Source: Siphonodentalium dalli (taxonomy: Eukaryota; Mollusca; Scaphopoda; Gadilida; Siphonodentaliidae). Taken from it: a stretch of DNA of 64,000 bases. The notes beneath the pieces were generated by a model that saw only the letters and a list, made by a program, of their open reading frames with translations, ran no database searches and was not told where the DNA came from. The stretch spans positions 53,962,025 to 54,026,024 of the forward strand of contig CP136068.1 in NCBI GenBank assembly GCA_032622095.1, in the 5' to 3' direction. The position numbers and the translations under genes are program-made. Below, in pieces: positions 20,601 through 63,257 of the stretch (positions are counted from its first letter, which is position 1; every line of letters begins with the position of its first letter).

Positions 20601-23600
20601 AATGTTTTTCAAAGTCGAAAGGCCCATAACTCTGGGAAAAATCATTGGATCAAACTCAAATTCGAACTTGACCTGTATTTTGATATGAACCCACAAAAAA
20701 ACAGAAACAATCCGAACTTGAGTTATCATCCGGAAACCAAAGAAAAAAGAAGAAAATTGAATTTTCCAAGTCGAAATAAAAGGTCGGTAGACCTCATGTC
20801 CGCCTCTAAGCGTCGGCTTGATACGACCGTTGTTTGCGCATAAAAACCTGTCTTTAGTGCTAGTAAACCTACATACCAAATTTAATTTCATTCAGTACAC
20901 ATTTACTAAAGTTATCATCCGGAAACCTCAAATTGACAAAAATTCTAAGTAAAAAAGGGACATAACTCTGGTGAAAATTGGCGGGCGGAACCCGAATTCG
21001 AACTTGATCTGTGTTTTTGCTGGGAGAAAGACACATACCAACTTTGGTTCAGATCAAATAATCCAAACTGGAGTTATCGGTCGGAAACCAAAATTGTTAA
21101 CAGACGCTCAAATTCTAAGTCGAATAAAAGGTCGGTAGACCTCATGTCCGCCTCTAAGCGTTGGCTTGATACGACCTTTGTTTGTGCATAAAAACCTGTC
21201 TTTAGTGCTAGTAAACCTACATACCAAATTTAATTTCATTCAGTACACATTTACTAAAGTTATCATCCGGAAACCTCAAATTGGCAAAAGTTCTAAGTAA
21301 ACAAGAGCTACGCTGGGCGTGCAAAATACTGGGGAAAATTGGCGGATGGAACCCAAATTCGAACTTGAGCTGTCTTTTCTCCTAATAAATCCACATACCA
21401 AATTTGATTGAAATCGGTTCACTCTAACTAAAGTTATCATCCGGACAACAAATTTCAGGGATTTTCTAAGTCAAATTACGTCAAAAAAGGGGCCATAACT
21501 CTCGCAAAAATTATCGGATTAAAACGAAATTCGGACTTGAGCTGTATTTCGATATATGTAATCCACAAAAAAAAGGGTTTTGCGTATAAACATTCCAAAA
21601 TCGAGTTATCAACCGGAAACCAAAAAACATAAGAAAAACTGAATTTTCTGAGTCGAAAAATATAATATTTATAAATAATATTACTTTTTCCTTAAGGGAA
21701 GCCCGAAACTGAACTATATGGATTACGTCTCCGGCCTTGTGTCAATCAGGAGGGTTAAAATTTTATTGCTGTGCCGATCCCACTCACACCCGTGTCCGGA
21801 TTAGTCTCGCATGAATACACCCGCATTCTATCTATTGTCTAGTCAGTTTTTTATTTCCGACTTAATCATGAGATTTGCGAGTCGCGGGGTTGGGAATGGC
21901 ACCACCATGATAGTGATAGTTCAGTTTCGGGCTTCCCTTAAGGAAAAAGTAATATTATTTATAAATATTATATTTTTCCGCCAAGGAGAAGCCCTCAACT
22001 GAACTATATGGATTAGAATGCAAGCCCAGGAGGAGGCACGAGCAATAAAGTTAATTAATATCCAAATTCGATGGGAATGTACTCTTCCGAAACAGGATTC
22101 ATGTAAATGTGATTTAGTCATGAATAAGATATGATTATGTTACGTGAAAGAGCTCCCAATTCAGATTACGACATTGCTCAAATGTGTACCGCCCCCCCCC
22201 CCCCTTGTTTTTGGAATAAACATCCCAGGTAGTGCCATATAATTCATGCTAGCGAGACAACCGAGCAAGTATAACTTTGCTGCATCCTATTCTCTTTGTT
22301 ATCTTCTTCGCTCTCTTGACAGTTCACATTATGAACTGATGTTGCATGCAGCCATTGTGTATGCCATAAGATATCAGAATGCTTATGATACACCAGGGAG
22401 CAAATTAACTGGAATCGCATCGCGATTTGCCACTGAAATGTGGATACCGGTAATAGCGAGGAATTTTTTATACATGTATGATGTTATAAAAATGCTATCT
22501 AATCATGTCAATGTGAGATTATTTGCTAATCAGATATCGAAAGTAAATTGCTCCCTGTGATACACAAACCAGATATAAAAATGATATGCTGCAGATATCA
22601 TAGCGAGGTATGAGGTTTCATTATATCATGCCACACATCTGTACTCCAGCCTCGTATAATGTAGAGAGCAGGGAACGCCATCATGATCCAAGGTATCATT
22701 GCATACCAGTATATATGGGATTAGAGAACACCACTGAGGACTTGATGAACAAGCATAGAAGCATCAGTGATCTATGATGGCGCACATAACGAGTGTCGGG
22801 TACATTTCGAAATGATCAAATGTAGCAGAATGATCAAAATTGCAAAATGACCGGTGAAGGAGTGGCCTGGAGGTATCCCGAAGGTATTACGATTCCAGGA
22901 GATTGGACCCCATCGTGTGGAGATGTGGGCCACTGCACCGTGGGGAAGAGATAGAAGGCTGGTTGGTGCAGCTCTTGGAGGCACGCAACAAGTCTTCCCC
23001 ACCCAGATCATTCAGCCTTTCTTTCCTACCGGTGAAGGAGTGGCCTGGAGGTATCCCTAAGGTATTACGATTCCAGGGGATTGGACCCCATCTTGTGGAG
23101 ATGTGGGCCACTGCACCATGGGGAAGAGTTAGAAGGTTGGTTGGTGCAGCACTTGGAGGCACGCAACAACAAGTCTTCCCCACCCAGAACATTCAGCCTA
23201 CCGGTGGAGGAGTGGCCTAGAGGTATCCCGAAGGTGTACGATTCCAGGGGAGTGGCTGGACTCCATCTGTGGAGATGTGGGCCACTGCACCGTGGGGAAG
23301 AGGCAGAAGGCTGGAGCAGCTCTTGGAGGCACGCAACAACTCTTTCACTTCCCCACCCAGAACATCCTCCAAAGGCTACAGTGCTGGATCTTTCCTGACT
23401 GAGATAAATACTTGTACTTATCGCAAATTGTTGAATTAAATGAAGCAATATAAGATATCAACCTGTATCCTCATCCTGTACAAAATCACTTACCAGCGGA
23501 ACATCAGAATCCTCGTCCGACAGTGTGCCTGGTGACCCACTGTCGACCCACGATTCTTGCTCATCGTCGTCAAACCTGCCGACGCCACGCGATGCAGAGA

Positions 23601-26600
23601 AGCATGTCAAGATCGACGCCAGCCAACAGAATTGGCTGCATCAGGTTGGGATACCAGACTGTGGAAGAGGCCTACTCTGAAATGGTTCGACGCAAGACAA
23701 ATGCTCTTGCATTTGGGATAAGTAGCTATGTCCTGTCCAAGGTCACCCCCTCAAATTCTGGGGCATCATCAAGCTGCGACCCCAAGGCCAGAGGGAATAA
23801 GTTCTGAGGAGCCATTTGATCAGAGGAAGCCCCTTCCATGGAATCCCCCAAATGCAGGTGGTCCTGACCAAACTGGAATAAATGTCGATGACATACCACT
23901 ATGATCACATGACGGCGGAGGAGCAGGCCCGGATGTATCCCGAAGGTATTACGATTCCAGGGGATCGACTGGACCCCATCTTGTAATGATGTGGGCCACT
24001 GCACCATGGGGAAGAGACAGAAGGCCATTTGGCTGGTGCGCTATGTCTATGAGAGCAAGAGCGTCACGTGACAACGAGTCTTCCCCACCCAGAACAGCCG
24101 CCAAAGGCTACTCCCAGGTGCCCAATAATTGTGGTGGCCTATAAACAGATCTTCGTGGCAGGAATCCAGGCCGAAATCAAAATACTGATGGAAATTTCAC
24201 TCTATGTGGAATAATAGTATATCGATGTGAATTTTTTCGAAATTTAATAATCGTATTGCCACCACCATTAGGCACCTGAGAGAAAGGTGCCGGAGCAATC
24301 GCCCGTGAAGATTGGTTTCCCGAATCAACCACTTGCAGCACCCGCCTACCATTGGTTAACACTGCCGTAGCAGGACCTGGGGGGCCAGAACTGGTCCTGC
24401 CCGAGGTAAAGACTGGTACGGTTGCTCAAAGTAGGTAATCATTGACTAATATGCCCTTACCCAACAATAACAAGTAATACACCCGTGAATGAGCAACCTG
24501 CACGGTGTGTGGCCATCAAATTCGAATCATGTTCGACTGCAAGACATGCTGTTAGTTATAACAAAACAAGGTTAATATACAAAGCAACACAATACAACCT
24601 AGGTTATTGAGTATAAAGTAAGGTTAATATAAAATCACGTTATACCCCTGGCCACGTGATCTTACCTGCTATGACAGGTAAGATACTGTCTTTTCTCGTA
24701 TATGAGGACGATGAGTTCCGAATGCACATAGGCAAGAACTAGGCGGTTTCCGTTAGGAAAGTGCGCTTACAGCGGACGTGAAGATACGAATGCCTTCATT
24801 TTCGTCATGATTGTATCGAATCGTTTTGTCACATAATCAGTGGATATGTGACAATAGACGAAGAGCCATGTCTTGGCCGGTTTCGGAAATATATTGGCAG
24901 TAGATGTGCGCAATATAAACGCTGCGCATGTAAGCTCGCTTTAGACATGTAACAATACAAATGCAGTCCTTTCTGATATTCTGCGCAATATAAATGTGTT
25001 GCATGTAACTGCGCATCATACACGAGTGAAAGCTATTTGGCAGAATATCGTTTTGATATATGTGGAAATAGAAGTTAGTGAGCCAAGTGATGGTCTCTAC
25101 TGGAAAGACTATTGGCAGTGAATCTGGAGCACGTGACAATATGTATTCTTTCTATTTCGCTGTTTGCCGTTATCATTCACTGATGAAACTGCAAAGTATG
25201 TCAGTATTGGGATGAAAACTGTTCACCATATGTAAGCATACTAGTAGTCAGTTCTGACAGCATACATGAGGCCCTGATACCATATGATTGTCATGTACAA
25301 TGTATGGAACTATTACGGCATGCAATACATTATTGCAAGCTCGCCCATGCCGAGGCATATTAGAGCCTACGGTAAGATGGCTTAGTGTCAGGCTACAAAG
25401 TTTTCACTTCATTGCAGTTGGTGAACAATAGTTCGTAGTAACCCAAACTGTACATACATGGATGTAAAGAATGCAAAACAATATTTAGAATGTCAGACAA
25501 CACATCAATTTGAAGTGTGGTTATATATGTGATAACGAATACCATCCCCCTGTTACGGAGTGTTAGAAACTATTGTACTGATGATACAATGAGTAATATG
25601 ATATTTAATCGTGATAGACAAGGCAGAATTTTCTAAATACCTTGAAGTCGATGTAATGTGTTATTACATTTGCCATGTGTCTAACAAGACCACGCGCTCA
25701 TACATACTGGCGGGTGTAGATTCGCAGGTATTGATCGTTAAAACAATGTTACAGATCGCTCAGTCGAAAGAAATGTGAATTGTCATCTGATAGTGATAAC
25801 AAGTACTATCTTTCGTATTTATTCATGTAAAGTATTACAAAGGAGGATATGGCTGTCCTGTGCAACTTTCTGCGAATTAACAGAGCAGTGCCATGTATGA
25901 TTTGGCAGTATACATTAGGATACAAAGCAACGGAACTTACGAAAGAACCGAAGCGAGTCGACGGAAACTTATGTAAAGTGAAACACGTGTAGCACGAAAT
26001 TAGGAGATATCGCATACCGTACTACATTGCGTCCTCAATTGTAAGTCATGATAGTCATCACGCCGTATGTGTGGCACAATATGCACTATGTGGTTTTGCC
26101 ACAAGTAAGCTATGTGCTTCTTTAGTCATTGTCAAGATGGCCATCTTAATTCCAATTGTTGGAAGATAAAGCCGTCTTGAGGAAAACAGAAAACACGGAA
26201 ACAAATTACGGATACAGTGAAACGAAAAAAGTTCCCGTTTCGGATGTGAGAAATATTAATTAACTATCGGGTACAATAAATTGCAAGTTTGTAATATCAA
26301 CAATAAATATTGAGTCGATAAACTCGCAACACAGAAAGATACAACCTTGAGAAAATAGAAACGATCCTGTCCTGGCGAGGAGGAATAAAAACTGACTAGA
26401 CAATAGATAGAATGCGGGTGTATTCATGCGAGACTAATCCGGACACGGGTGTGAGTGGGATCGGCACAGCAATAAAATTTTAACCCTCCTGATTGACACA
26501 AGGCCGGAGACGTAATCCATATAGTTCAGTTGAGGGCTTCTCCTTGGCGGAAAAAGGGGCATAACTCTGCCAAAAATGGTCGGACAGAACCCCAGTTCGA

Positions 26601-50600: not shown

Positions 50601-53600
50601 AGGTGGTCACTGAAAGATACATCCCAAATCTAGAAGTAAAATTGAAAATGAGCGTAGTTCAGACGATAGTGTCTATGGAGCTGAACGGTCGATATTCATG
50701 ATATGTTCGGCGAAGTGAGTAGAGCGCCAATTTCCCCTGTGAGATATAGCACCCGCATACTAACTTATCAGGTTCACTCACACGATCAAGTCCATAATAC
50801 GTCTAGGTTTGTCTCATAAAAGCGGCCTAATTGTTGAATAAAAATCTAACAGATTAGAAGGCCAAAAAACTATAAAGACAGGTCTCAACAACACCTGGAA
50901 TACCCCGACGGGATAAGAACGGAGGTGAGAATTGAGGCGAAAGAAACTTATTCAGGAGCAGTTCCTGAATGCGGCACATAGCCAGAGCAATGCGATATGG
51001 CAGAAAGCAGACTGACCGAGGAAACCTCAGAGTACAAAGAATGAAGGTAATATTGTACAAAACACTCAGTCGAATGAATGCCACTTGTCGGCGACTAGGA
51101 ACAATGAGGTAGCCAAGGCAAGAAAGGGTTCGGAAAAACCGCTATGTGCCGTGACAGCATGAACCTGGATGGACTGAGACAGAACCAGCGGTAGATGCTG
51201 CAGAACCTCCATCGCTGCTCGTCGCTGCGAAGGTTGTGGGAGCCGCGACTACAAATAGAGGAGGCATGACCACCAACAGATTCCGAGCCTGCAGCGCAGG
51301 CTGTACCGAGTTGACAGAGGAAAATTCATTGTTGCCCATCTTGGAGAAGGTTGTGGAAGCCGCGACTACAAATAGAGGAGGCATGACCACCAACAGATTT
51401 CGAGCCTGCAGCGCAGGCTGTACCGAGTGGACAGAGGAAAATTCATTGTTTCCTGTCTCTGCGAACGTTGTGGAAGCCGCGACTACAAATAGAGGGGGCA
51501 TGACCACCAACAGACTCCGAGCCTGCAGCGCAGACTGTACCGAGTTTGGCAGAGGAAAATCCATTGTTGACCGTCTCTGCGAAGGTTGTGGAAGCCACGA
51601 CTACAAATAGAGGAGGCATGACCACTAACAGACCCTGAGCCTGCTGCGCAGGCTGTATCGTGTTGGCAGAGGAAAATCGTCACACGTTGGTTTTTGTTCT
51701 TGATATGTGGGCCCCATGCAGTCCTTCGGTTGTGGAAGACAGGCGTACTCAGGAGGCCGCGACCAATAAGGAGGAGGCATGTCTCGCAACCGACTCCAGC
51801 GGAGGCTCCATGTGAATGGAGGAAACAAGAGAATGGCGCTGTTTGTTCTTCCTTTTTCTGTGCTGTTAGTATCGTGCTGGTAATAGTCCAGTGCATTTAT
51901 GGTTTTACCCAGAACTAATTGCAACAGAATTTTTTTTTGCTGGAATTGGTACATATACCCTCCGTAAATAACATAATAAAAATTGGCATAAATCGGAAAA
52001 AGAGAAATTAGTGAATTTCGTGAAAAAACAATTGGGAAAATTTGGTAAAATCATCAATATATGGATTTTCATGAATGTATATACAAAATTCAAATTTACA
52101 AGTCCTACAAATATCATGCCTATTTTGTCGACCACATTTTCCTGAATCCAGAACTGGAAACCATTCCCAGATTCCTTAAGTATTTTTCGAGTTGTGTGTT
52201 TTCAAAAACGCGAGTTTACCTGATTTTGGAGCCTTAATTTCGCAGAATGAGCCAAATGCCGTATTATATGGTTAATTATTTAAAAAACTAGTGCCAAATT
52301 AATGACTTTTTCACTGTTTTAGTAATTTCCTCACTAGATTAAACACAAAATATGATTAATATGTGCATCTATGAATAAGGAGAATAAAATATTCTCAAAC
52401 TAAATGTGTGTTCCATTGTATGGACTTAGCCAAATTTGCCTTGACACAGAATTTGTGTGATGAAATGCCATATTTGAGGTCATGTAACTCAATAAATTAA
52501 TATCCATATGCTCTGCTTTTCTCATAACATTGTGAGAATACTAGATTGAAGAAATTGTGAAGTAATTTCCAAATACATTGGTGAAGAAAATAAAATTATG
52601 GTCCTATGAACTCTTAGTCTAGCCTCTTTTCCGAAAATGCTATTGTGGGGCGTTTTTGTCTATTTTAAAAGGATTTTAGGCATATTCAGAATAATTAACG
52701 AAAGTTTATTGTGTAAAATGATGTGATCTGTGTCCTCTTAAATCATTTTTTTTGTTGAGAAAATAGCATTTCAATGGTTATACCAATGAATGTCACTGGA
52801 TTTCACTCATCATTATGGAAAATTTGAACGGCAGAACAATGGGGTAGGGGAAAGCATATCAACAAAAACTTCAAAATTATGCATCTTGAAGCATAAAACT
52901 TTATATTAACAGCTTCTGCTTACATGGTTCTTTCATGCATAATTTCATATTTCCTTTGTTTATGTTTATTGACAGAGCTATGTCATAATTTGGCAGTGAA
53001 ATGTCAAATTGGCATTTTGAGATTGTTTTTATACAACATAACCATAAAATTCTAAATCAACGTCGGATAAAGTATTAAGCAGTTTATAATGCAACAGGAA
53101 TGTACACAAACTGGAAGAAAACAACATTGTGTCTGAAATGGCTGTAATTTGGTGATAAGATTGCATTTTGTGATTTTTCCTACCCCTATACCAACGTTAA
53201 AATTTGGAGTCAGTTTCCTGAAAAATGAAAGAAATCTAGTGACATACTATGGCATAACCAATGTAAGGCTAACTGTTTATCACTTAAGTGTTGTGGGAGG
53301 AAAGTTCAAATAATTTTACACATTAAAACACCCATTGTTTTTTGTTTTTATGGCCCAAAACCTTTTAGAATGGACAAAAAAGCCTCAAACTGGCATCTTT
53401 GGAAACAAGCTAAGACTAAGTATTCAAAGGGCCATACGTTGATTTTCTTAAATAATGTCCTGTTAATACCTTTACAATTTGTTCAATCCAACATACTTAA
53501 AAGGTTATAAGAAACGCATGGCATATGGGTATTAAATTATTGAGTTACATGACCTCAAATATTGCATTTCATCACACACGTTCAGTGTCAGAGGCAAAAT

Positions 53601-56600
53601 TGGCTTAGTCCATACAATGGAACACACATTTTGTTTGAGAATATAATCTTCTTCTTAATTATAGATGCACATATTAATCATATTTTGTGTTTAATCTAGT
53701 GAGGAAATTACTAAAACAGTGAAAAATCCCTTCAGTTTGCTCTATTTAAAAAAAATAATTAATCATAAATAAGGCATTTTGGCTCATTCTTCGAAAGTGA
53801 GGCCCCGAAAATGGGCCGAAATCAGGTAAACTTGCATTTTTGAAGGCACACAGCTCGAAAAATACGTAATGAATCTGGGACTGGTTTTCAGTACTGGGTT
53901 CAGGAAACTGAGGACGACACAATACACATCATATTTGTAGGATTTGTGAATTTGATTGTTTTTATAAACATCCATGAAAATCCATAAATTGATGATATGA
54001 CCAAATTTCCCCAAATTTATTTCACGAAATTCACCAATTTCCCTTTTTCCGATTTTTGCCTGTACAAAGCAAGGCCACACTGGTGGAGGAAAGAACACAG
54101 GTGAATAATAGGGATACATACCCACCCCAAAACTGGGAGGGACGGATGCCGGAAAGACGTTGACGAATGGAGAACAGGTCAGAACCCGTGCGGTCAAATC
54201 CCCTGGAGTGGAAGCAGTGGCAGTTGACACATTGAACTGCGTAGGCAGGTAATGTGCTAAACGGACCACTGATGTGGTATAGCTGTAGCAAGTGGCCGGC
54301 TGGTGCAGCGATGGTGCGAACCCGGCGGAACCGGAGGCAGGACCAAGGGCAGCTGCACTTGGACCACCATCGCTGCCCTTCTCTGCGGGGGCTATGGACG
54401 CTGCGACCCTGAGGGAGGAGGCATGTCCACCAACCAACTCCAGCGGAGTCTCCAAGTTAATGGAGGATGCAAGAGAAGGTGCCACGTCAGCAGAGGTGCC
54501 ACGATCATTGAACTTGATAATCGATAGTCAATACTAGATTAGAATCGATGAAGCGTATCTAATAGCAAGGACAGAGGAAGTAGTGCATAATATTCACATG
54601 TGCATAATTTGTATCAGAAACCACAGAGACTGTCCTTCCCATGACAAAAAATATAGTTTCGTTGATTAGAAGGGTGTAATTGCACCGGTAATATAATTGT
54701 AAGTTGGGGTTATCTCAAATCAAAGGTCATTGTGTGATATACCCAAGTCCACTGACAATTTCACATGCCCATAAATTAACGGAGATGGGAAATGTGCTAA
54801 ATATATCTTCGCATATTTTAATATTGATGGTGACCAGGTGGACAAGTGCAAATGGTGAATACCCGTGAATAGAAAATTGCGAGAGCAATCGTTACTGACT
54901 CGTGGGAAGGAAAGCCGGTAATTAGTAATGAGCACAATGCGTTACCAATATCTTTGCGCGATCAATGATCGTTAACCTGTCCGTTGGATATTAAACTGTA
55001 AAACAGGGTATCCAAATATGTCCGTTACTTTTCGACATCCGAAATAAAGAACTCAGAGTAATCGCAGCCGAAAATGGTCATCGAATATCGGCCGTATCAA
55101 CATTTCATCGATTATACGCTTAATCGTGGCACCCCTACCTGTCGGAGGGAAATAACATTACGAAGTTTTCATCGGAAAAGCATTGAGCCTTATGTTCAAT
55201 GTAGAGAGAAGAGGCAAGCCACACTGTGGCTATTTTATCTAGCATCCGTGAGGAAAATTATTGTAATGTAAAATATTGTAAATTATTACTTCCAATACAT
55301 TTGGATAGGATTTTGTCAGGGACCAAACTCCAAACTGGAGCTTAGTGGAGACGACAACACGATATTGCATCCGGTGCAGTGTTAAAAAACCCCGATGAGA
55401 ACCCGAAAGACTCGAAAGAGCATCGGTTTGTTTTATTGAGTATTGTTTTATGCAAACAAAAACGATATTTGTTCGAAGTGATTCTCGTAAATAAAACAAA
55501 ATTGAAATATTTGTTAATGAAAATATCCACCCACGGACTACTGTCATTAATAAGACAGTATTGTAGAATAAAAGATTGTTGAACAATTGTAAAACTAAAT
55601 TGCGAAAATTGGAAAACACGTGCGTAGTGCACGAAATTAGGCAACTGCGTGTTGTCGTTCGCAATAGCATAAAGAGAAACGTTCATGAGAAATGAACAGA
55701 TAAAAAATGCGACTTATCTTGCGTCTAGAAGAATTTAAAATGAATGAGGTCTTGTCTTTCCATCGCTGTTATAGTGAAAGGACTCGCATGATTGGTCCAA
55801 AGAATATATCGCCATTAATTGGCATTTGACAAGTGCGCGTACTCGAGGTATTGCGTACCGATTTTTTTTTTTACGACTTATAGATTTCTTGCAAGCAAGA
55901 ATATATAACCATTAGTTTCAGTGTCCAAGATATATTTGATGGAGATATGACTCGTTCCCATCTACACGTAAATGTCAACATTCATGACAAATTTCATAAA
56001 GATCAGACCAAAGATACGACCTTAGCCCGCGCCAAAGGAAATTGTTGACGGACACACGGACGACGGATGCCAACCCATGGCAATAGCTCAAACTTACAAA
56101 GTAAGTTGAGCTAATAAACCAAGCAATAAGAAGTTTAAATATTTTTATGAATATAGGGAAAAAGTTGTATGATGGGGTTCGTAAATTGATGTTTCCTATT
56201 ATGCCTGTTGCCTATTATGATTTAAAACACACAAAGAGCTTTAATTAACTCTTATATGTTGTATATTTATGTCATCTGTGTATTATATCAATTGTTTGGA
56301 TTTGGAAATAAAAATATGTTTACATCAAAGAGCTTTAATTGATACATGTCATACATATATCTTCGGATACTTACCACGCAGCAGTTTTGATTGCATTTAT
56401 GCCGACCACAATGTTTTTTCTTGTTGCACCTCTTATCACAAGTGAACGGCTTATCACCTAGGGGGAAAAACAGGAAATTCTATCCTAGTCATTTAACCAT
56501 TCATACAATATTTTAAATTCTTATAAGTTTATTAATGACTACATGGTACTGTAAAGAGGGATTATATAAAGCGACTCCCCATCTGATCCATTCTAGATTG

Positions 56601-59600
56601 TATACTGTATGTAGCTATTTATTTTAGTGACCTTAAACTAATGTCTCATATATCATGTCCATGTATACAGTAAAACTGAAGTCATTTAAATGTTCACTCG
56701 AAGTCCTCAGTCACATATTGGTACAGATGCCCAAAATCTCAGGTCACCAATGATACTTTCAATATTGATTGTCCGATGTAGATATTGTGCTTACAAATTA
56801 TAACTCACCATATAAGGCCTTTGCCTCTTGACACAAAAACTCTCGATCTATGTTTCCACATCTACAATTGATTGTTGTCATCCCATCACACGTGTCACAC
56901 TCTCCCTCGTGACATGTCTTCTTACATCTGTGCTCGTTTCCTGCAAACCGCCAGAACAGACAACATCTTGATAAATAAAGAACTCAGAACAAAGATGCTA
57001 CTTAATGTTTTGTGTGTTTTTTTATGCACAAATTAAATAATACAACAACAAAAATAATAAGTTGTTAACTCATTCACTCTACTCCATGTTATGTCAGTGT
57101 CTCATAAAAGACAAATTTTCCAACTCTGTAGGCATCTAATGCATCATTGCAGCTGTCTTCTTCTACCCGCAAAATAAATATCTTAATTGAATGCTACATT
57201 GATTTTTTGTGCGGAGTTCAATCTGATTTATAGTAATAGCAATTGAATGTTCTAAACTTTACTGTATAAACTAAAAGCAACAAAGTGACTGTTATCTAAA
57301 ATGATATGTCTCTTAATTAGGCATGAAATGCATACTTTTAATTTTGTGGCCTATTACTGGCAGAAAATGTACTATTGTGTTATATGATATGCATTTTATT
57401 TAGGGATGAAACAATATTTTCCTAAATAAGTAAAATATATATCTCCTAGAAGTATCTTGCCCACTGAACTATATGGTATATTATCCCAAGTAGGAGGGGT
57501 TAACTCTCTGAGTTGAAAAAAACGTACGAAATTCTATGGTACATATCTTCTGTCATGTTCATGACCCGTGTAATCACGTGATTTCTGACACGTAGTGAAG
57601 GAATCGCCATATTTTTTATCCCCAGTAGGATATTCCTCGTGAGCGGGGTGGGTGCGAAACCCTGGGAGGGAGCTCAGCGTTCAGTGGGCAAGATACTTCT
57701 AGGAGATATATATTTTACTTATTTAGGAAAATATTGTATCTCTGTCAAAGGTATCTTGCCCACTGAACTATATGGTAAAGCATAGAATTTTCTAACAGGT
57801 GGAGGCCACGAGGAAACAAAAACACCGCTATGCATCTGAATCAAAGAACTGGATTGACCTGATAACCTACAATATATACATATACATTGCACAGACATAT
57901 AGATATATATGTATATACATATATATAAATATATACACACATGCACAATAGGACCATAAGCCAATGTAATATTCCATCCTAAAACTAATACCTGTCAGCA
58001 AGCTCAAACGAACAAAAAGTGGCCACTTAAGAGTTTAAGACCCCTGCAAGTAAAGTAAATAGCTTCAGAAGACATGGAGATGGATACGACATTCGCATCG
58101 GAACTTAGGGCTAATAATGTATCAGCCGAGTACTTGCCGGGAAAGGTACAGGTAACACCCCCCCCCCCCCCCCCCCCCCCCCCCCCGAAAGGGGAGAAGC
58201 ATCCATGTTCTAAGGAAATAGAAATAGAAAAATACCCGTTGACAAGAAATCCCCAACCGGGTATTATAAACCCAGGGATGGCTAAATACTAATACCGCAC
58301 CTAACAGGCTAACCCAGGCAGCAAAAGCCGCAAGTAATAACGAAGACCCCCCTTCAAAAACAATAGAACCAACCCCCGAACCAAATCTTGAGTGGGTTGG
58401 GCCGTGTCCCAGTACACGATGAGAGCCCGATGAAAAACCAGCTGCAAGCTCCCAAGAAAGGGCCCGACACCAACTACTTGGAGACATGCCATTGTCGATA
58501 AGGAGGAGGTATCATTGACCAATAGTCTGACCGGGAAGCGAATGGGTATTACACAGACATACGTTGCAAGGCTCAGGCCGTATGAAGAACATGGCTCAGA
58601 ATTGGAGTTTCACAGCAGAAAACTTAGTTTGAAGCCTGGAGTTAGAGATATGACCGACTAAGATGCAATAAGCCATGTCATTTTTCCCTGATGACATTCC
58701 CAAATGTGGAAATGCCCACCTACACAGTTAAACCCAACTGACCAATCACAGGCTACTGAATCCATGACAGAAAGGCAGCCAGGAACCGAAATTCCAATGT
58801 CGTTAAGGTGGAAATCCACAAAAACAAAAATTGGACTAACGATGCATCAGGATTGTGGCACAAGCCCAAACCAGCAGAAACTGACGGCAGGTATGTAATG
58901 AAAAGCAGACCAAGGGCCACCGCGCCCCAACTGTTCGAGCTCTGCTGACTGGTCCCCGACGAGTCGATGGCGCAAGATATCCCTTCTGGTAAGGATGGGG
59001 TGCCCTTTCAATGGGACCCTGTTCCGGAGACAACCATCGCCCGAAGTGCGAATCGAGAGGGCGGATCATATGATCTGGCATCCGACACCCAATGCTAATG
59101 AATCTCGCACGAGGAGAAGCATCTGGCAAGAATTTTCATCCGGCTTTATGAAGTGTGCCCAACACGATTCATATGCTGCCCCACAGGTGCAACATTATCC
59201 TGCATTGGCAATCGCTGAGGTCAGCAAAGGACCTGGCTTAGTATGTTAAATGAGCACTAGGCGAATCAAGCACTATCAGGGAAAACAAAACCATTATGTA
59301 CCGACAACCGAGCCCATAAGAAGAATGACGTATTAGACGCAAAGGCCGATATCACAAAAGCCATTTCGTTCTTCTTTTCCATGCTGCTAATACGCCGTGT
59401 TGCCCATTAAGCCCGAGTGGGGTGCTGAACTAGACCTCATGTCAACAGTGTTCTGAAATTGAGCATATGTCGAACCATGGATAATGGACTCATCTATGTA
59501 TGACTGGACAACAAAAGTGAAATCCATGTTGAGTTAGCACTGAAAGCAACCTGAAGACAAAATATATGTCATTCGTATCTATTACGGAAACACAGCGAGG

Positions 59601-62600
59601 TCGGAGATAAAGCATGTATGCTTGTTTATCTCTGATTCTTGCGTCCCAAATCGAGATGTAAATATTTACCCTATCGAGCACCCGAACCAGTCCAGAACAC
59701 GTCTTAAAAGTCAGGAAAATGAAAGGGCGAGAGTCATATACTAATCTAGTGATATGAATGACTATAGACATTCTCCATCAAAGCCCGTGACCATGAAAGA
59801 GCTGGATGGAACATGGAAAGAAGCAACAACTTATAAAGTAAGAAGTTGAACACATCCCAACCCGAGAACAGTAAAATGGTTGAATACCTCTCAGGATGGT
59901 CGAACCCAGGTCGCCAAGTGTGCAGTCCGATGGCATAACCACCCAGCTCTGACGACGTTAGGCAGGGTACAAATTGACCGGCATCACAGGGCAAGTTGCT
60001 ACCCAAATGCTAACAAAAGCCATGCAACTTGGATCCTATTTCCTCATTTGACTGTCCTAGGGTATGCCAACAGTCGTCCCGTAGTATCCGACTTGGAGTC
60101 CCTGTTGATAGTCCAGAAAGCCCACCAAATGCGGCCAATGGGTTCGATGGGTAGCCCCAACCCGCGACCTGTTTGGTGGGACTATCATCCTGAGTGCTAA
60201 TTACGCCAATGAAGGGAACTCTATACATCGACAAGTGACAGTGTCCTGGTCGTAAAGGTTTCTATCTCTTCCTTGGAAACACTTGAAACAAGGGAAAGCA
60301 CTCTGATGTTCTGTTAAATTGTAAATGATTGTAGAACAATGCTATCAAATCATGTCAATCTGAGGTTATTTGCTAATCAAAATTCGACATTAATTTTCTT
60401 CCTGCGCTTGGCTGCATCAGTGAACACTGAACAACTAACTGAGCTCCCTCGTAAGCGCATGTAAAGGTGACCCGAAAGGAATGTCGAAAGCCCTTTCACC
60501 TCGTGCTGGAGCGACTGCTCGATTTGACCCTGATCTCCATCCGTCGATGGGGTGTTAACATCACAATACACCACGACAAGCTTCATTTCTAATTGCATGT
60601 GAGGTCTGGTCATTGGGGACCCCGGAGGAATGTCCAGAGCCTATACATCTCGGGGTGGAGCAGCAGCAGGACCGATCCCGATATCCAACCGACCGAACTG
60701 GCGATGGGAGGTTAGTAGGTACCAGTTCCCAAGCAAGCTTCCTGCTATAATGGCGTCAGGGAATAAGATCTTTTGTTTTCATTTAAAATCAAACCCGAAG
60801 TTACTGGCAGCTGTTGGCCAGAATGCGGCCAGTAACCTGTCTGCCAAGCCCCCGGAAGTGGTGACTTATAATAAGGAGGAAACAAGCCTGTGAACTGTGA
60901 TCCCATTCCAAGCCCAGCTGGGGCAGAAGGCATGGAGGATAAACTTTCAGGTGCCAAATAATTGCGTAAATGTAATAATTTGAGAAAAAGTCTCCTAATT
61001 TGAATTGAGACAAAGTAAAATGGCCATTCGACTAGTAATTTTAGCCCAAATTTCCACACACTATGATCATAAGGCACCGGAGAGCATGGTCAGGGACCAC
61101 TGTGGGTGTATCCCCCAGCCGCGCTGACCCCGAGATGACGACTTGTAGCGATGGACGGCGTGTGTCGAGTGTTTTAGTAGAGCTCAGTGGTCACGTCAAC
61201 AGCCAACGGTCGACCCGCAGAAGCAGATTGACGTCCCGTTCGATAGTCCAGGGAGCGCACCAACGTGACTAATGGGTTCAATGTGTAGCCCCAACCCGCG
61301 CCCTGTTTGGTGTGACTATCGCCCCGAGTGCTAATTACGCCAATTAGAGGAACACGATATATCGGCAAGTCAGAGAAGGATACAGGGATGTTTTGATACC
61401 TGTTACAGGTTTGGGTGCCCAAACTATAGAGACCCAAATGTCCCCAAATTCCATGTAGATAGTATTTATTCCAGTTGGATCTTCCATATTTTCAAGGAAT
61501 TTTTCTACAATTCAACAAAATGTCCTAGTAATGCAAATCATCAGCCCGCAGATGATATTATAGTCTATAATATGGAGCCTTTATTTGCACAATCAAGTAT
61601 CCAGTACTGAATATTTTAACATCCAAATTTATATGGGCACATACTCAAATACAGAACAGGTGTCCCCAAACAAAAATTCTCTGGATCCTTCCCCGCGAGT
61701 TTGTCCGTGTCCTAGGGGAAGCAACTCGTGTGAGCTACGGGTTCGATGGGTAGCCCCAACCCGCGTCCTGTGTGGTGTGACTATCGCTCCGAGTGCTAAT
61801 TACGCCAATTAGAGGAACCCTATATATCGACTTTCGTTCTCTATTCTTGGGACCTCGAAACGAGGGAAGCGACGTCAAGGGGAGCTACGGGGAAGGCGAT
61901 TCATGAACCTGTTCTTACCTCGATGAGCAGTCCTGTGAAAGTAATTAATGAGATTACGAACAATCACAAATACACCTGTTGTGTTATGTTACCATGTCTG
62001 TGCCAACCAAGGCAGTAACAGCTCCATTGTTGGTTAAAAAGGTTCAAATTGACATTCAGGATTTTACAATCCTATCAGCGTATTCCACAAGCGTTAAAAC
62101 AGTGCTTTTGTCTTCAGTTTTACACCAGACGATGTTATTGTTAACGTCTAAAGAAAGCCGTAAAACGAAAAAATGAACTTGAAAGTAAGTCACCTAATTT
62201 CGTGATACCTTTAACCACCGTCAACGAACGTGGTAACTTAAATTATACGTCACCTGTATGCCATAGATTTGTTATAAAGAAAACGATCAGCGTCTTTAGT
62301 CATATCCAATGGTGCCTCGAATGTTCTGTCGTTAATAGGCCAGAAATTCTTACATTGTCGGCATAAACAACGGATATTACTTGATTTGACCGATTAAAAT
62401 TATGGAAGACAAAGTCCGTTAAAACGAAACGAGTCATCCATTTCCGATCTTATATTCGGAACAAAACCGCGTAATCTTTATGTGAATTGTTACATAATTT
62501 TCAACTATAAGCAAAGAAATAATGTTGTTTGTATAAAACAAAAACAAAACTGATTTTGCTATACAAACTGCAACTTAGCTTCGTATTCTTTGTGAGAGAT

Positions 62601-63257
62601 TTCTTTTTGCACCCGTCCTGGTGAGGAGGGAAAAAAATATGGCCATGATTACACGAAGATATGTACCATAGAATTTCGTACGTTTTTTTCAACTCGGAGA
62701 GTTAACCCCTCCTACTTGGGATAATATACCATATAGTTCAGTGGGCAAGATACCTTTGACGGAGATATGCATAATTTTTTTGCATCGGAACAATATTAAA
62801 TGTTCATCATAATCACTCACTCATAAGAGCTTTATACAGATTTAGTCAATGTTGAATGCTTATGCAAGGGTAAGTTGAAAGTAAGATAATTTTTAAGTCT
62901 GAAATGCTCAAATTAACTTAGAATAATACCTGAGTTTACCAGAATTTTGCTATTTTTAATTAAACTAATTCTTTATTGTTTTTTGTATAAATTGCTCTTA
63001 CAAATTCATCAAATTGATTTGCAGCCAGATCTAATGACATACTCTTACCTTCTGTTCCACAAGTCAGGATTTTATCACAGATAGCCTCGCAGGTCGATAT
63101 TGGGTCTGTGCATTTCTCTCGTGGCGTCTTTTGCAGAGAGGTCAGTAAGCTCCGCCCACAAGGGCAATGAGTGACAGTTTCAGGTAGTAAGTTGCATGGT
63201 GAGCAAACACCAGGATGACAACTTTTCTGGCAGCTATGGTTGCCGCATCCAAGCTGC
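17497..63257 (-). CDS. NFX1: NFX1 orthologue, 3' part of gene (14 exons, 5' end outside window)
   Basis: Spliced minus-strand gene. Exons in coding order: 63257-63049, 56940-56809, 56457-56375, 47007-46899, 45690-45491, 43876-43772, 42630-42502, 35940-35852, 33602-33513, 32517-32377, 31300-31234, 29682-29537, 28332-28225, 17608-17497. Together they give 1720 nt: one base completing a codon, then 572 residues and TGA, with matching phases throughout. I number residues from the first whole codon. Residues 4-327 hold NF-X1-type Cys/His fingers, about 455-505 an R3H domain (R469-x3-H473), and the tail ends in IDYFD. NFX1-family proteins are nuclear factors that bind X-box DNA or, through R3H and PAM2 regions, RNA/poly(A)-binding protein; vertebrate NFX1 also has a RING-type ubiquitin-ligase finger upstream. 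The R3H domain separates NFX1/shuttle craft from NFXL1. The N-terminal part is missing only because the window ends. Confidence 0.95.
18242..19991. mobile_element. hAT-type element, non-autonomous, with 8-bp duplication
   Basis: Perfect 8-bp 'ttgacaaa' at 18234-18241 and 19992-19999. Ends CAGTGTTCGCCCTG and its inverse (with one change region) are typical hAT termini. Subterminal GTGGCTAA motifs are clustered at both ends, as expected for hAT transposase binding. The interior lacks a full transposase; only one exon-like remnant remains (19727-19917). It lies in the last NFX1 intron. Confidence 0.9.
19727..19917 (+). pseudogene. Remnant N-terminal exon of a hAT-like transposase
   Basis: Begins [15 protein letters not shown] and continues ...[15 protein letters not shown] basic nuclear-localisation-like start and a K-x2-DFF motif are common at the N-terminus of invertebrate hAT/ZMYM-type transposases. 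The similarity is lost after about residue 45. It reads outward toward the element's right end, so the remnant is rearranged. Confidence 0.5.
20540..21660 (-). repeat. Tandem array of dispersed mollusc-type repeat ('gggcataactctg')
   Basis: Units of ~200-300 bp hold 'cataactctgg.gaaaattg', 'attcgaacttgacctgt', 'acataccaaatttaatt' and 'aagttatcatccggaaacc'. About four diverged copies. Element E1 is inserted in this array: the same family resumes at 26556. Minus-strand open frames here are repeat-derived. Confidence 0.85.
21661..21972. repeat. E1 unit A: 312-bp palindromic left end
   Basis: Perfect 56-bp inverted ends with CTGAACTATATGG inside. The centre holds the X arm (matching the far end of E1) and a unique part with GCGGGGTTGGGAATGG, a motif with counterparts in E2, E3 and E4. 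Confidence 0.9.
22853..23400 (+). repeat. Tandem repeat inside E1, ~172-180 bp x 3 (fourth copy 23920-24110)
   Basis: Units contain 'gaaggagtggcctggaggta', 'gagatgtgggccactgcacc', 'ggcacgcaacaa' and 'tcttccccacccaga'. Related copies occur in E2 at about 38255-38420 and 38955-39060. Mirror open frames on both strands arise from the repeat. Confidence 0.9.
26556..28170 (-). repeat. Tandem array of dispersed mollusc-type repeat, right of E1
   Basis: Continues the 20540-21660 family. The best part is three ~205-bp units starting near 27268, 27471 and 27683, over 95% alike, each ending in 'cggacggacg...gctgattataatagtcctcc'. A more diverged unit follows to 28075, and the array ends 140 bp before NFX1 exon m. 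Confidence 0.9.
28225..28332 (-). CDS. NFX1: NFX1 exon m: post-R3H tail
   Basis: Acceptor TGTTTTCCAG, donor CTCAA|GTAAGTT. Residues 500-535 hold a proline-rich stretch (PLAPPPIS) matching the proline-rich C-terminal tail of NFX1 proteins. Phase 2 at both ends. The following intron is 10.6 kb and holds E1 plus a hAT element. Confidence 0.9.
28561..28765 (+). repeat. Tandem repeat, ~57 bp x 3.5
   Basis: 'gactgtgaatgcattgtcgt' with 'ggtccctggtcacaattac' recurs at about 28613, 28670 and 28728, with a diverged copy from 28561. Confidence 0.9.
28945..29085 (+). repeat. Tandem repeat, ~39 bp x 4
   Basis: 'tgattggctatccatgtgag' plus 'gcattgtgcattt' repeats; the 13-codon period keeps a minus-strand frame open, which is not a gene. 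Confidence 0.85.
29537..29682 (-). CDS. NFX1: NFX1 exon l: R3H domain core
   Basis: Acceptor ACATTCCAG, donor TACAG|GTATGTT, phase 0 in and 2 out. Residues 452-499 contain the R3H signature R469-x3-H473 followed by LGELYG and [11 protein letters not shown], nearly identical to other NFX1 proteins. R3H domains bind single-stranded nucleic acid. This exon fixes the gene as NFX1 rather than NFXL1. Confidence 0.95.
30008..30932 (+). repeat. Dispersed 'gatgtggtctgtagggtgtg' repeat with terminal hairpin
   Basis: Several internal copies of 'aagtttggtgat', 'catgcaaagagtaaaatcca' and 'agatggc(t/c)gc', ending in 'ggacagacagacggatgg' and 'ccatggcagtaactcaaac'. Ends carry inverted 'gta.gatcaactt' and 'aaagttgagcta'. 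After it, arms 30823-30860 and 30874-30912 ('gaacggtgtgtgctgc...') plus outer 30788-30809 / 30911-30932 form a strong hairpin. A second copy of the family at 48036 is split by E3. Confidence 0.75.
31234..31300 (-). CDS. NFX1: NFX1 exon k: start of R3H region
   Basis: Acceptor CTGTTTTCAG, donor AAACAG|GTAAATG. The 67-nt exon encodes residues 429-451, a helix-forming segment ([18 protein letters not shown]) that in NFX1 proteins leads into the R3H domain. Phase 2 in, phase 0 out. Confidence 0.91.
31460..32289. other. Intron of NFX1, no other feature seen
   Basis: AT-rich intron sequence between exons j and k without recognisable repeat or exon. Confidence 0.5.
32290..32345 (-). repeat. Diverged second copy of NFX1 exon j 3' end and donor
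   Basis: On the minus strand this segment reads TATTCACAATTCCTCAAAG then a donor-like AAGTGAGAAT, matching the last bases of exon j and its AAGTAAGAAT donor with several substitutions. It lies ~75 bases downstream, so it is a tandem duplicate of the junction. Confidence 0.8.
32377..32517 (-). CDS. NFX1: NFX1 exon j: linker (LDCDELC segment)
   Basis: Acceptor GTATTATAG, donor GCCAA|GTAAGAA. Residues 382-428 carry [20 protein letters not shown], the most conserved part of the NFX1 linker. A diverged second copy of the last ~45 bases of this exon with its donor lies just downstream at 32290-32345. Confidence 0.92.
32560..33500. other. Intron of NFX1, no clear feature
   Basis: AT-rich sequence between exons i and j. 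A short hairpin ('aactcgtcgtcaacacgagtt', 32719-32739) is the only structure noted. Confidence 0.5.
33513..33602 (-). CDS. NFX1: NFX1 exon i: linker
   Basis: Acceptor TTCCTCCCTCAG, donor AGACA|GTTAGTT, phase 2 at both ends. Residues 352-381 form a Ser/Lys-rich linker (motif [10 protein letters not shown]) corresponding to the stretch between zinc fingers and R3H in other NFX1 proteins. The +3 T and the A at the exon end make the donor weak. Confidence 0.87.
34059..35487. mobile_element. hAT-like element, non-autonomous, 8-bp duplication
   Basis: CAGGGTTTCCGCCAGG at the left and its inverse at the right (35474-35488) are hAT-type ends. 'ggttaagc' at 34051-34058 and 35488-35495 is a perfect 8-bp duplication if the right end's last G is shared with it. 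Interior ~1.4 kb holds a ~107-bp tandem duplication (35100-35275, 'gagtagtttcatcca') and no transposase; a 118-codon minus frame (34887-34531) has no recognised domain. It lies in the intron between exons h and i. Confidence 0.8.
35852..35940 (-). CDS. NFX1: NFX1 exon h: terminal CSCG turn and linker
   Basis: Acceptor TTGTTTTAG, donor CAAAA|GTATATA (the last exon base is A rather than the usual G). Residues 323-351 start with a C327-x-C329-G turn that closes the cysteine-rich region, then a polar segment ending ETYQQYQ. The donor was chosen because it alone gives the phase (2) needed by exon i; reading on only adds lysine-rich intron codons. This boundary is a little less certain than the others. 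Confidence 0.86.
36356..36451 (+). repeat. Tandem duplication, ~49 bp x 2
   Basis: 'actatggacacaagttgtta' with 'acatataactcgg' occurs at 36357 and 36407. Confidence 0.9.
36902..42315 (+). mobile_element. E2: two-part fold-back element, same family as E1
   Basis: Unit A (36902-37234) has ~50-bp inverted ends with a small indel. Unit B runs from 37235 ('tttttccgccaaggagaagc') to its inverse ending at 42315. The X arm 36945-37112 is a near-perfect inverted copy of 42095-42280 (about three differences), yet both differ from E1's arms at many sites and small indels. Poly-C of 15 at 37453, 218 bp from the B start as in E1. Interior segments 37640-37850, 38100-38580 and 39880-40350 are related to E1. 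It lies in the intron between exons g and h, flanked by a ~36-bp tandem repeat ('gatattactcggat'). Confidence 0.85.
37559..38113 (-). pseudogene. 184-codon open frame inside E2, possible decayed element protein
   Basis: The longest of the open frames inside the four E elements. It contains an acidic stretch ([14 protein letters not shown]) aligned at the DNA level with [15 protein letters not shown] in E1 (minus strand near 23560). E1 has a two-base indel just before it and a GTAAGTG donor-like site after [10 protein letters not shown] shared acidic peptide hints at an ancestral coding exon, but the rest of the frame has no domain I recognise and overlaps repeated DNA. It may not be a gene. 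Confidence 0.25.
42502..42630 (-). CDS. NFX1: NFX1 exon g: last NF-X1 fingers
   Basis: Acceptor TTCTGTTACCAG, donor ACTGAG|GTAAATA, phase 0 at both ends, 43 codons (residues 280-322). An acidic segment (SEDES) precedes C289, C293, C300, H302-P-C304, C308-H309, C313 and C319. The next 6.6-kb intron contains element E2. Confidence 0.92.
43170..43286 (+). repeat. Tandem repeat, ~43-48 bp x 3
   Basis: 'gatcgctaatcgggctgccg' plus 'atatgatatgattaga' repeated three times. Confidence 0.95.
43772..43876 (-). CDS. NFX1: NFX1 exon f: NF-X1 finger
   Basis: Acceptor CTTTATAG, donor CACAAG|GTAAGTT, phase 0 at both ends, exactly 35 codons (residues 245-279). Carries the conserved PCYL and ISCGLACG segments, then a finger core with C268, H271, C273, C277-H278 that is completed in exon g. 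The acceptor has only a weak pyrimidine tract. Confidence 0.91.
44397..45295. mobile_element. hAT-like element (GGTGCCACGATTA ends)
   Basis: Ends 'taagggtgccatg' and inverse of 'tagaggtgccacg', with ATCGAT-rich subterminal sequence on both sides. 'gaatcgaa' (44389-44396) and 'gaatcggt' (45296-45303) are a diverged 8-bp duplication. The flanks belong to one ~155-bp tandem host repeat ('gttattg.g.taac.gtctta'), which the insertion splits. No transposase frame. Confidence 0.75.
45491..45690 (-). CDS. NFX1: NFX1 exon e: NF-X1 fingers
   Basis: Acceptor CCTGTTGCAG, donor CATGAG|GTAAGGC. Residues 178-244 contain a CHCG turn (185-188), a [10 protein letters not shown] stretch strongly conserved in the family, and a finger with C204, C208, H212, C214, H216, H220, C222, C228 and C231. 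Phase 1 in, phase 0 out; it joins exons d and f with no missing residue relative to the usual NFX1 order. Confidence 0.94.
46050..46062 (+). repeat. Short GATA microsatellite
   Basis: Three 'gata' units in an intron. Confidence 0.7.
46430..46898 (-). repeat. Tandem copies of NFX1 exon d 3' end plus its splice donor
   Basis: About seven imperfect units of roughly 60-80 bp lie in the intron right after exon d. Read on the minus strand, each resembles the end of the exon (ACCGTG...GGCAAATG...CTGCTAGCTA) followed by GTAAGTATAG and a short intron piece. At least three further copies, near 46597, 46655 and 46713, keep a usable GTAAGT or GTGAGT donor; others are mutated. The array ends at the real exon, so it grew by tandem duplication of the exon-intron junction. 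Confidence 0.85.
46899..47007 (-). CDS. NFX1: NFX1 exon d: NF-X1 finger, followed by decoy donor array
   Basis: Acceptor CTTCTTCAG, donor CTAGCTA|GTAAGTATAG, entering in phase 0 and leaving in phase 1. Residues 142-177: H145, C147 and C151 finish one finger; C157-x2-H160-x-C162-x3-C166-H167-x3-C171-x2-C174 is a complete further one. The exon's 3' end plus donor is repeated several times just downstream in the intron (46430-46898). Reading through the true donor meets TAG within four codons, so use of a downstream copy would truncate the protein. Confidence 0.93.
47055..47209. mobile_element. MITE-like palindrome, ~60-bp arms
   Basis: 'gtacagtatgt.ttttcttgta' and 'gtccaggttgtggtgaaa' on the left are mirrored on the right, with a loop of 'tatcg' repeats. 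It lies 50 bp upstream of the NFX1 exon d acceptor. 'agtccaatataactttt' fragments reappear near 47429, so relatives are close by. Confidence 0.85.
48036..48687 (+). repeat. Dispersed 'gatgtggtctgtagggtgtg' repeat, left part split by E3
   Basis: Four ~120-bp internal units ('gatgcaaagagtaaaatcca', 'gcggccatgtttttt', 'aaaatgactcgttccc'). The sequence stops in 'gatcctaaaat' at the E3 boundary and resumes at 55947 with 'atgactcgttcccatctac', exactly continuing the unit. Confidence 0.85.
49548..50583. mobile_element. hAT-like element nested in E3
   Basis: 'cagtccttcga' at the left is mirrored by 'tcgaaggac(tg)' at the right. 'tgaaatcc' occurs at 49540-49547 and 50584-50591, an 8-bp duplication overlapping the last two bases of the right end. 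GC-rich 'gcgcgc' subterminal motifs are near both ends. Confidence 0.75.
50235..50327 (+). pseudogene. Remnant acidic C-terminal tail of a transposase
   Basis: Inside the nested hAT-like element, a frame reads [20 protein letters not shown] and ends in TAA. A Ser/Asp/Glu-rich end fits transposase or zinc-finger protein tails, but no other domain of the protein survives. Low certainty. Confidence 0.3.
51229..51700 (+). repeat. Tandem repeat inside E3, 117 bp x 4
   Basis: Units start 'gaaggttgtggaagccgcga' at 51229, 51346, 51463 and 51580 and include 'gaggaggcatgaccaccaac'. The 117-bp period is divisible by three, so frames stay open on both strands; they are repeat artefacts. A related unit lies at 54390-54480. 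Confidence 0.95.
51985..54060. mobile_element. ~2.1-kb palindrome nested in E3
   Basis: Arms 51985-~52760 and ~53270-54060 are reverse complements over nearly 800 bp at roughly 75-80% (blocks 'aaatcggaaaaag.gaaatt', 'gtgttccattgtatggacta' variants, 'ttgaggtcatgtaactcaat'). Spacer ~500 bp, AT-rich, no coding frame. Related 117-bp-type E3 sequence flanks it on both sides in direct orientation. Confidence 0.8.
54491..55137. mobile_element. Short hAT-like element nested in E3
   Basis: 'cagaggtgccacgatca' and the inverse of 'taggggtgccacgatta' are near-identical ends, matching the element at 44397-45295. The flanking 8-mers agree at only five positions, so the duplication is weak. Confidence 0.6.
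55947..56114 (+). repeat. Dispersed repeat, right part split by E3
   Basis: Continues the 48036-48687 repeat and ends 'gacggacacacggacgacgg' and 'gtaagttgagctaa', the inverse of its start ('tagctcaacttag'). Confidence 0.85.
56375..56457 (-). CDS. NFX1: NFX1 exon c: NF-X1 finger start (CGRHKC motif)
   Basis: Acceptor CCCCCTAG, donor GTG|GTAAGTA, ending in phase 0. Residues 114-141 include C120, C124 and C130-G-R-H133-K-C135 followed by C139-C140. The CGRHKC motif is a hallmark of this position in NFX1 proteins. The 9.4-kb intron after it holds element E3. Confidence 0.93.
56809..56940 (-). CDS. NFX1: NFX1 exon b: NF-X1 finger
   Basis: Acceptor GGTTTGCAG, donor TATG|GTGAGTT, phase 1 at both ends. 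Residues 70-113 complete a finger (H73, C75, C79-H80, C84, C87) followed by the family's typical C-x-C-G turn at 95-98. Separated from exon a by a 6.1-kb intron that is almost entirely element E4. Confidence 0.92.
57868..57940 (+). repeat. TA/CATA-rich microsatellite in E4
   Basis: Irregular 'tatacata' and 'tatata' runs. Confidence 0.7.
58158..58186 (+). repeat. 29-base poly-C tract in E4
   Basis: Uninterrupted C run, preceded by 'gtacaggtaaca' and followed by 'gaaagggg', so C-rich and G-rich stretches could pair or form an i-motif/G4. Confidence 0.95.
63049..63257 (-). CDS. NFX1: NFX1 exon a: NF-X1 fingers
   Basis: Acceptor TTTCTGTACTCAG and donor GAAG|GTAAGAG. The first base completes a codon begun upstream; the last base G is carried into the next exon. 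Encodes residues 1-69, with the finger C4-x2-H7-x-C9-x3-C13-H14-x3-C18-x2-C21, then a CPCG turn (31-34) and the start of the next finger (C56, C60, C66). This spacing is that of the NF-X1 zinc finger. Upstream coding exons must lie beyond base 64000. Confidence 0.93.

What the first reader, a model, noticed from the sequence alone, without database searches (positions are those of the whole stretch)
21661..62766. Four elements in one gene share an unrecognised two-part fold-back architecture
Seen directly: E1, E2, E3 and E4 each consist of a 312-373-bp left unit with its own near-perfect inverted ends, joined with 0-2 bases to a 4.6-6.9-kb unit with its own inverted ends. The left unit's inner sequence is an inverted copy of the far right end. 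Three sequence families (E1/E2, E3, E4) keep this plan and a small set of motifs (CTGAACTATATGG, GCGGGG.GGG...TGGGAGGG, AGGAGGC.ACGAG, a poly-C tract). That suggests a conserved mobile-element class rather than chance nesting. I know no named superfamily with this layout.
Basis: partly seen in the sequence, partly recalled or inferred. Interest (0 to 1): 0.88.

Follow-up and report, generated by a model that had tools for sequence, protein, structure and literature searches.

The report
Non-coding DIRS-type jumping elements
Four stretches of DNA in and next to one animal gene have the complete ends of a known kind of jumping element (DIRS retrotransposons) but no recognisable genes, so they look like passengers copied by another element's enzymes.

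Summary
Each of E1-E4, read on the minus strand, is left inverted repeat - interior - left and right internal complementary region (ICR) - right inverted repeat - right extension, the layout published for DIRS1-like retrotransposons (PMC3266345). The ICR is the reverse complement of the element's two ends joined as a circle: 100/100 (E1), 95/95 plus 6 gap columns (E2), 99/100 plus 1 gap (E3), 98/99 (E4). Joined host flanks recreate neighbouring repeat units for E1 and E3, with nothing duplicated beyond a short shared core (AAAAA, AT).

What is unusual: 255 open fragments gave no reverse transcriptase, RNase H, methyltransferase or tyrosine recombinase, and E1/E2 differences have no codon rhythm. 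E1's conserved inverted repeats still match 143/143, so E1 is young and was probably non-coding when it inserted. Best reading: non-autonomous DIRS1-type elements, three sequence families, copied in trans by an unseen helper. E2-E4 lie between exon pieces of an NF-X1-like gene; E1 lies beyond its R3H exon. Related genomes could not be searched.

The parts
21655..26555 (-). E1: whole non-coding DIRS1-type element, 4.9 kb; 5' end at window right
21655..21851 (-). E1 right terminus: right extension (outer AT-rich about 29 bp), divergent and conserved right ITR
21916..21978 (-). E1 right ICR, complementary to the right terminus, 63/63
21973..22015 (-). E1 left ICR, complementary to the left terminus, 43/43
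22028..22037 (-). E1 motif GCCTCCWCCT before the ICR
26387..26555 (-). E1 left terminus (left ITR)
36898..42315 (-). E2: whole element, 5.4 kb, same family as E1 (67-80% in the five longest shared blocks)
36898..37110 (-). E2 right terminus
37140..37170 (-). E2 C-rich motif between ICR and right ITR
37178..37238 (-). E2 right ICR
37235..37278 (-). E2 left ICR
37291..37300 (-). E2 motif GCCTCCWCCT before the ICR
42122..42315 (-). E2 left terminus
48688..55948 (-). E3: whole element, 7.26 kb including the nested palindrome
48688..48931 (-). E3 right terminus
48964..48996 (-). E3 C-rich motif between ICR and right ITR
49006..49062 (-). E3 right ICR
49061..49105 (-). E3 left ICR
49122..49131 (-). 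E3 motif GCCTCCWCCT before the ICR
51985..54060 (.). Imperfect palindrome (arms about 0.84 kb, 79% alike) nested in E3
55728..55948 (-). E3 left terminus
57411..62767 (-). E4: whole element, 5.36 kb
57411..57550 (-). E4 right terminus
57643..57670 (-). E4 C-rich motif between ICR and right ITR
57679..57737 (-). E4 right ICR
57737..57777 (-). E4 left ICR
57797..57806 (-). E4 motif GCCTCCWCCT before the ICR
62655..62767 (-). E4 left terminus

Best explanation
E1-E4 are coding-less, non-autonomous retrotransposons with complete DIRS1-type termini, read on the minus strand. Inferred cycle, using the published DIRS model: an RNA starting in the left inverted repeat lacks parts of the ends; a helper DIRS1-like element's reverse transcriptase copies it; the missing outer ends are restored on the ICR, which is an antisense copy of the end-to-end joint; the product closes into a circle, and the helper's tyrosine recombinase inserts it at a short T/A-rich core shared by target and joint. 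Shown here: the anatomy, the ICR equal to the reverse complement of the joint, insertion without further duplication for two elements, homogenised ends within each element, and absence of recognisable DIRS protein domains. Inferred: the RNA step, the helper, the circle and the recombinase.
For: ICR against the joined ends: 100/100, 95/95 plus 6 gap columns, 99/100 plus 1, 98/99. The order lITR-lICR-rICR-rITR-rE and a sequence of about 10 nt shared by both ITRs and both ICRs match PMC3266345 section 10 (read whole). Sizes fit: ICRs 41-45 and 57-63 bp, against 46-67 for LgDIRS2 of L. gigantea; E1, E2 and E4 4.9-5.4 kb, against a published mean of 5160 bp. Joined flanks of E1 and E3 align across the joint to neighbouring repeats (5 and 2 spanning alignments). 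Ends of one element resemble each other far more than the other element's: E1 98.7%, E2 95.5% within, 71.7-75.5% between. No RT, RNase H, methyltransferase or recombinase family in Pfam (E up to 0.1) for 66 fragments of 80+ aa (64, 2), 95 of 45-79 aa on the minus strand and 94 on the plus strand. Mismatches 193, 203 and 204 in the three phases and 12 of 59 gaps a multiple of 3 over seven E1/E2 blocks. E1's conserved ITRs 143/143 identical.
Against: No helper element or protein was seen, since no genome is held, so DIRS origin rests on anatomy alone. Fragments under 45 aa were not scanned, Pfam may miss very diverged DIRS proteins, and no positive control was available. Weak Pfam hits to other families appeared: 10 families (best DUF3860, 5e-05), 6 (best DUF3270, 0.005; one Transpos_assoc, 0.037), 1 (0.08, below its cut-off), 8 (best 0.0049); I take them as chance. 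Short direct repeats do flank the elements (AAAAA at E1, AAAA at E2, AT at E3, at most A at E4); I read them as the recombination core because the ICR carries them once, but a 5-base duplication at E1 alone could not be told apart. E2 and E4 gave no spanning empty-site alignment. Terminal trinucleotides of E3 and E4 do not clearly fit the usual NTT.
Confidence: 0.87

Rival explanations
1. Decayed autonomous DIRS elements: each inserted with working genes that have since mutated beyond recognition.
For: Sizes are those of complete autonomous DIRS elements (table in PMC3266345).
Against: Conserved end pairs still match 143/143, 164/167, 189/193 (plus a gap) and 86/87, too young for a coding region to vanish; E1/E2 interiors show no codon rhythm.
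Confidence: 0.06
2. A new class of DNA transposon or fold-back element, moved by an unknown recombinase acting on DNA, with no reverse transcription.
For: No coding content was found, so reverse transcription is inferred only from resemblance; short direct repeats flank E1-E3.
Against: The main features of the termini have published DIRS counterparts, including the right extension and the 10-nt four-way shared sequence; the flanking repeats vary in length (5, 4, 2, at most 1) and the ICR carries them once.
Confidence: 0.05
3. Chance side-by-side insertion of two independent inverted-repeat elements (A next to B).
For: None found.
Against: Same end and same joint in 4 of 4; A and B overlap by 1-6 bases; the joint equals the reverse complement of the outer ends joined; none in 10 shuffles.
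Confidence: 0.01

Closest known systems
DIRS1-like retrotransposons (DIRS-1 of Dictyostelium; LgDIRS1-3 and AcaDIRS1-2 of molluscs; PMC3266345)
   Same: Inverted terminal repeats with divergent and conserved parts; right extension; two ICR halves near the 3' end overlapping at the joint; about 10 nt shared by all four; insertion without further target duplication (E1, E3); total size.
   Different: No RT/RNase H, methyltransferase or tyrosine recombinase domain detected, and no long open frame.
[quoted passage not shown]
   Same: A non-autonomous partner of a recombinase-type retrotransposon.
   Different: SIRE is a few hundred bp, in kinetoplastids, from an element with split direct repeats; these are about 5 kb with inverted repeats and ICR.
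LARDs (large non-coding derivatives of LTR retrotransposons; recalled, named in passing in PMC8498967)
   Same: Kilobases of non-coding interior between functional ends.
   Different: LARDs have direct LTRs (recalled); these have DIRS termini.
Fold-back transposons such as FB or Galileo (recalled, not tested by sequence)
   Same: Long inverted ends.
   Different: As recalled, those duplicate their target and have no ICR equal to the end-to-end joint.

Membership tests
DIRS1-like retrotransposon | Inverted terminal repeats | tested here: met
   Conserved part 143/143, 164/167, 189/193 plus a gap, 86/87
DIRS1-like retrotransposon | Two ICR halves near the 3' end, complementary to the two element ends and meeting at the circular joint | tested here: met
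   4 of 4 elements; '3' end' follows from the layout itself, as no coding strand is available
DIRS1-like retrotransposon | Right extension matching only the ICR | tested here: met
   Outermost part of the right end, roughly 30 bp, has no counterpart in the left end
DIRS1-like retrotransposon | About 10 nt shared by both ITRs and both ICRs | tested here: met
   ACTGAACTAT in E1/E2; GGACACTGAA in E3; CCCACTGAAC in E4
DIRS1-like retrotransposon | Insertion without target-site duplication | tested here: met
   E1 and E3, apart from a short core that the ICR carries once (AAAAA, AT); no spanning alignment for E2 and E4
DIRS1-like retrotransposon | Terminal trinucleotide NTT equal to the joint | tested here: inconclusive
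   TTT fits E1 and E2; E3 has a 2-base AT core, E4 unclear
DIRS1-like retrotransposon | Genes for RT/RNase H/methyltransferase and tyrosine recombinase | tested here: not met
   None in Pfam scans of 66 + 95 + 94 fragments; hence filed as a non-autonomous derivative, not as a full member
DIRS1-like retrotransposon | Circular DNA intermediate and recombinase-mediated insertion | not testable with these tools
   Needs DNA or RNA from the animal
Ngaro/PAT-type elements | Split direct repeats A1-B1-A2-B2 | tested here: not met
   Termini are inverted, not split direct
TIR DNA transposon or fold-back element | Target-site duplication of fixed length | tested here: not met
   Flanking direct repeats are 5, 4, 2 and at most 1 base

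The most novel reading that the evidence does not exclude
A long-lived, purely non-coding lineage that lives on DIRS retrotransposons: three families with largely unrelated interiors but full DIRS size share the termini, the ICR and two short motifs on either side of it. If so, those motifs would be cis signals that DIRS replication needs, and the 5 kb length itself may be selected.
Probability: 0.4. Interest if true: 0.6.

Novelty: new variant of a known kind. Interest (0 to 1): 0.42.

Why it matters
A 2017 review (PMC5633606, passages) calls the DIRS-1 replication mechanism not fully proven and proposes testing an element that lacks the ICR; a later paper on its cDNA intermediates is known to me only by recall and was not held. 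Coding-less elements that move anyway strip the element to what must be present in cis, and comparing three families points to the joint, the termini and two flanking motifs. Surveys that rely on RT or recombinase domains would miss such copies.

Tried and rejected
Side-by-side insertion of two elements: rejected by the joint identity and shuffles. Fold-back or TIR DNA transposon: disfavoured, since flanking direct repeats vary in length and sit once in the ICR. Decayed coding copies: disfavoured by end identity and absence of codon rhythm. RNA genes: no tRNA in the window, no Rfam family at gathering score in 20000-64000. One scan of viral contigs for an E1/E2 terminal sequence gave 0 matches.

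Literature: ten searches listed no paper whose title or shown abstract start describes coding-less DIRS1-like elements with intact ITR and ICR; two searches listed 20 of 22 and 20 of 29 papers. 'Non-autonomous DIRS' as a phrase gave 0 papers. Passages were read in PMC3266345 (plus section 10 whole), PMC9210276, PMC5633606, PMC5753468, PMC8498967, PMC6681497, PMC3783388 and PMC8969392; others were seen as listings only. Most subscription journals and Repbase are not in the library, so such elements may already be catalogued there.

Rows left out: one search printed only alignments that span the joint. Of 66 fragments of 80+ aa found in the elements, 64 went into; the two missed were scanned, and the plus-strand fragments of 45-79 aa, both while checking this report; neither changed the reading. 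The host scan used 106 of 330 fragments of 45+ aa outside the elements, those of 66+ aa; further exon pieces came from motif searches by script.

Full report
What was checked. The four structures were located by repeat search and read directly. Each has an inverted pair at the window-left end, a second pair spanning the rest of the element, and a long arm of the left unit repeated inverted at the far right. An ungapped detector finds the joint in E1, E3 and E4 and none in 10 shuffles; E2 is missed because its left end has six gap columns against its ICR.

What it is. Read on the minus strand the order is left ITR, interior, left ICR, right ICR, right ITR, right extension. PMC3266345 (section 10 read whole; [quoted passage not shown] Its five mollusc elements have ICRs of 39-46 and 67-88 bp; here they are 41-45 and 57-63, the second somewhat shorter. 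PMC8969392 (passages) gives the same diagnostic features and the lack of target duplications. The strand is deduced from this layout, not from genes.

The strongest test. If the ICR templates the closing of a circle, it must be the reverse complement of the two outer ends joined. It is: E1 100 of 100, E2 95 of 95 with 6 gap columns, E3 99 of 100 with 1 gap column, E4 98 of 99. For E1 and E3 the ends are fixed independently by host repeats: the joined flanks align through the joint to neighbouring repeat units, 5 spanning alignments at 69-74% for E1 and 2 at 79% and 90% for E3. Nothing is duplicated beyond a short core, AAAAA at E1 and AT at E3, which the ICR carries once. E2 and E4 gave no spanning alignment; E2's joint (AAAA) lies in a short local tandem repeat that looks restored by eye, E4 (at most A) is open.

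Within-element homogenisation. E1's two long arms match at 98.7% and E2's at 95.5%, while E1 against E2 arms match at 71.7-75.5%. A 34-base stretch of the right end and its ICR copy are identical within E1 and within E2, but differ at 2 of 34 positions between them. Ends and ICR are therefore renewed together, as expected if one templates the other in each cycle.

No genes found. Pfam scans of 66 stop-to-stop fragments of 80+ aa and 95 plus 94 of 45-79 aa on the minus and plus strands gave no reverse transcriptase, RNase H, methyltransferase or tyrosine recombinase at E up to 0.1. Scattered single hits to unrelated families appeared (best DUF3860 5e-05; one Transpos_assoc at 0.037) and are taken as chance. 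In seven E1/E2 blocks mismatches fall 193, 203 and 204 in the three phases and 12 of 59 gaps are multiples of three. Because E1's conserved ITRs match 143/143, E1 inserted recently and most likely without genes. E1 and E2 are alike at 67-80% in their five longest shared blocks, so the non-coding form itself seems to have been propagating. Movement in trans by a helper is inferred.

Shared motifs. E1/E2, E3 and E4 have mostly unlike interiors, yet the alignment around the ICR keeps a CTCGTGGCCTCC-like motif before it and a C-rich stretch between it and the right ITR. GCCTCCWCCT lies before the ICR in 4 of 4 elements, with one further match inside E3, 0.04 expected in the window. The C-rich pattern matches 3 of 4; E1 has a shortened version. 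Their role is unknown; promoter, priming or packaging signals are possible. The patterns were chosen after seeing the alignment, so the chance figures flatter them.

Host context. Minus-strand fragments carry NF-X1 zinc fingers at 62963-63292, 56801-56983 and 46888-47028, and an R3H domain at 29521-29703 (E 1e-13). Cysteine-rich pieces at 45434-45715 and 42487-42654, and pieces at 32376-32624 and 31123-31329, look like the same gene but gave no Pfam hit. E2, E3 and E4 thus lie in introns of an NF-X1-like gene on the minus strand, in its orientation; E1 lies about 3 kb past the R3H exon, in a last intron or outside.

Verdict. Real, and explained by a known layout. The coding-less, full-size form is the point of interest. 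Searches list no paper that by title or abstract start describes it, but Repbase and subscription journals were not searchable.

Noticed in passing
window 51985-54060: A 2.1 kb imperfect palindrome (arms about 0.84 kb, 79% alike) sits inside E3; I saw no target duplication at its ends by eye.
   Followed up: partly
window 51216-51677 and 22850-23344: Tandem arrays of 117 bp (E3) and 178 bp (E1) inside the non-coding interiors; part of the E1 unit recurs at two places in E2.
   Followed up: no
window 29521-63292, minus strand: Exon pieces of an NF-X1-like gene (NF-X1 zinc fingers and R3H domain); all four elements have its orientation.
   Followed up: partly
window 20618-28002: A repeat family with the motif AAAGGGGCATAACTCTGG surrounds E1; E1 inserted into it.
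   Followed up: partly
window 58158-58186: A run of 29 C in E4 (poly-G on the element's sense strand); E1 has a shorter C run near 22192.
   Followed up: no
window 26364-26386 and 62610-62630: E1 and E4, of different families, share a CCTCCTCRCCAGGAC-like stretch just inside the left terminus.
   Followed up: no
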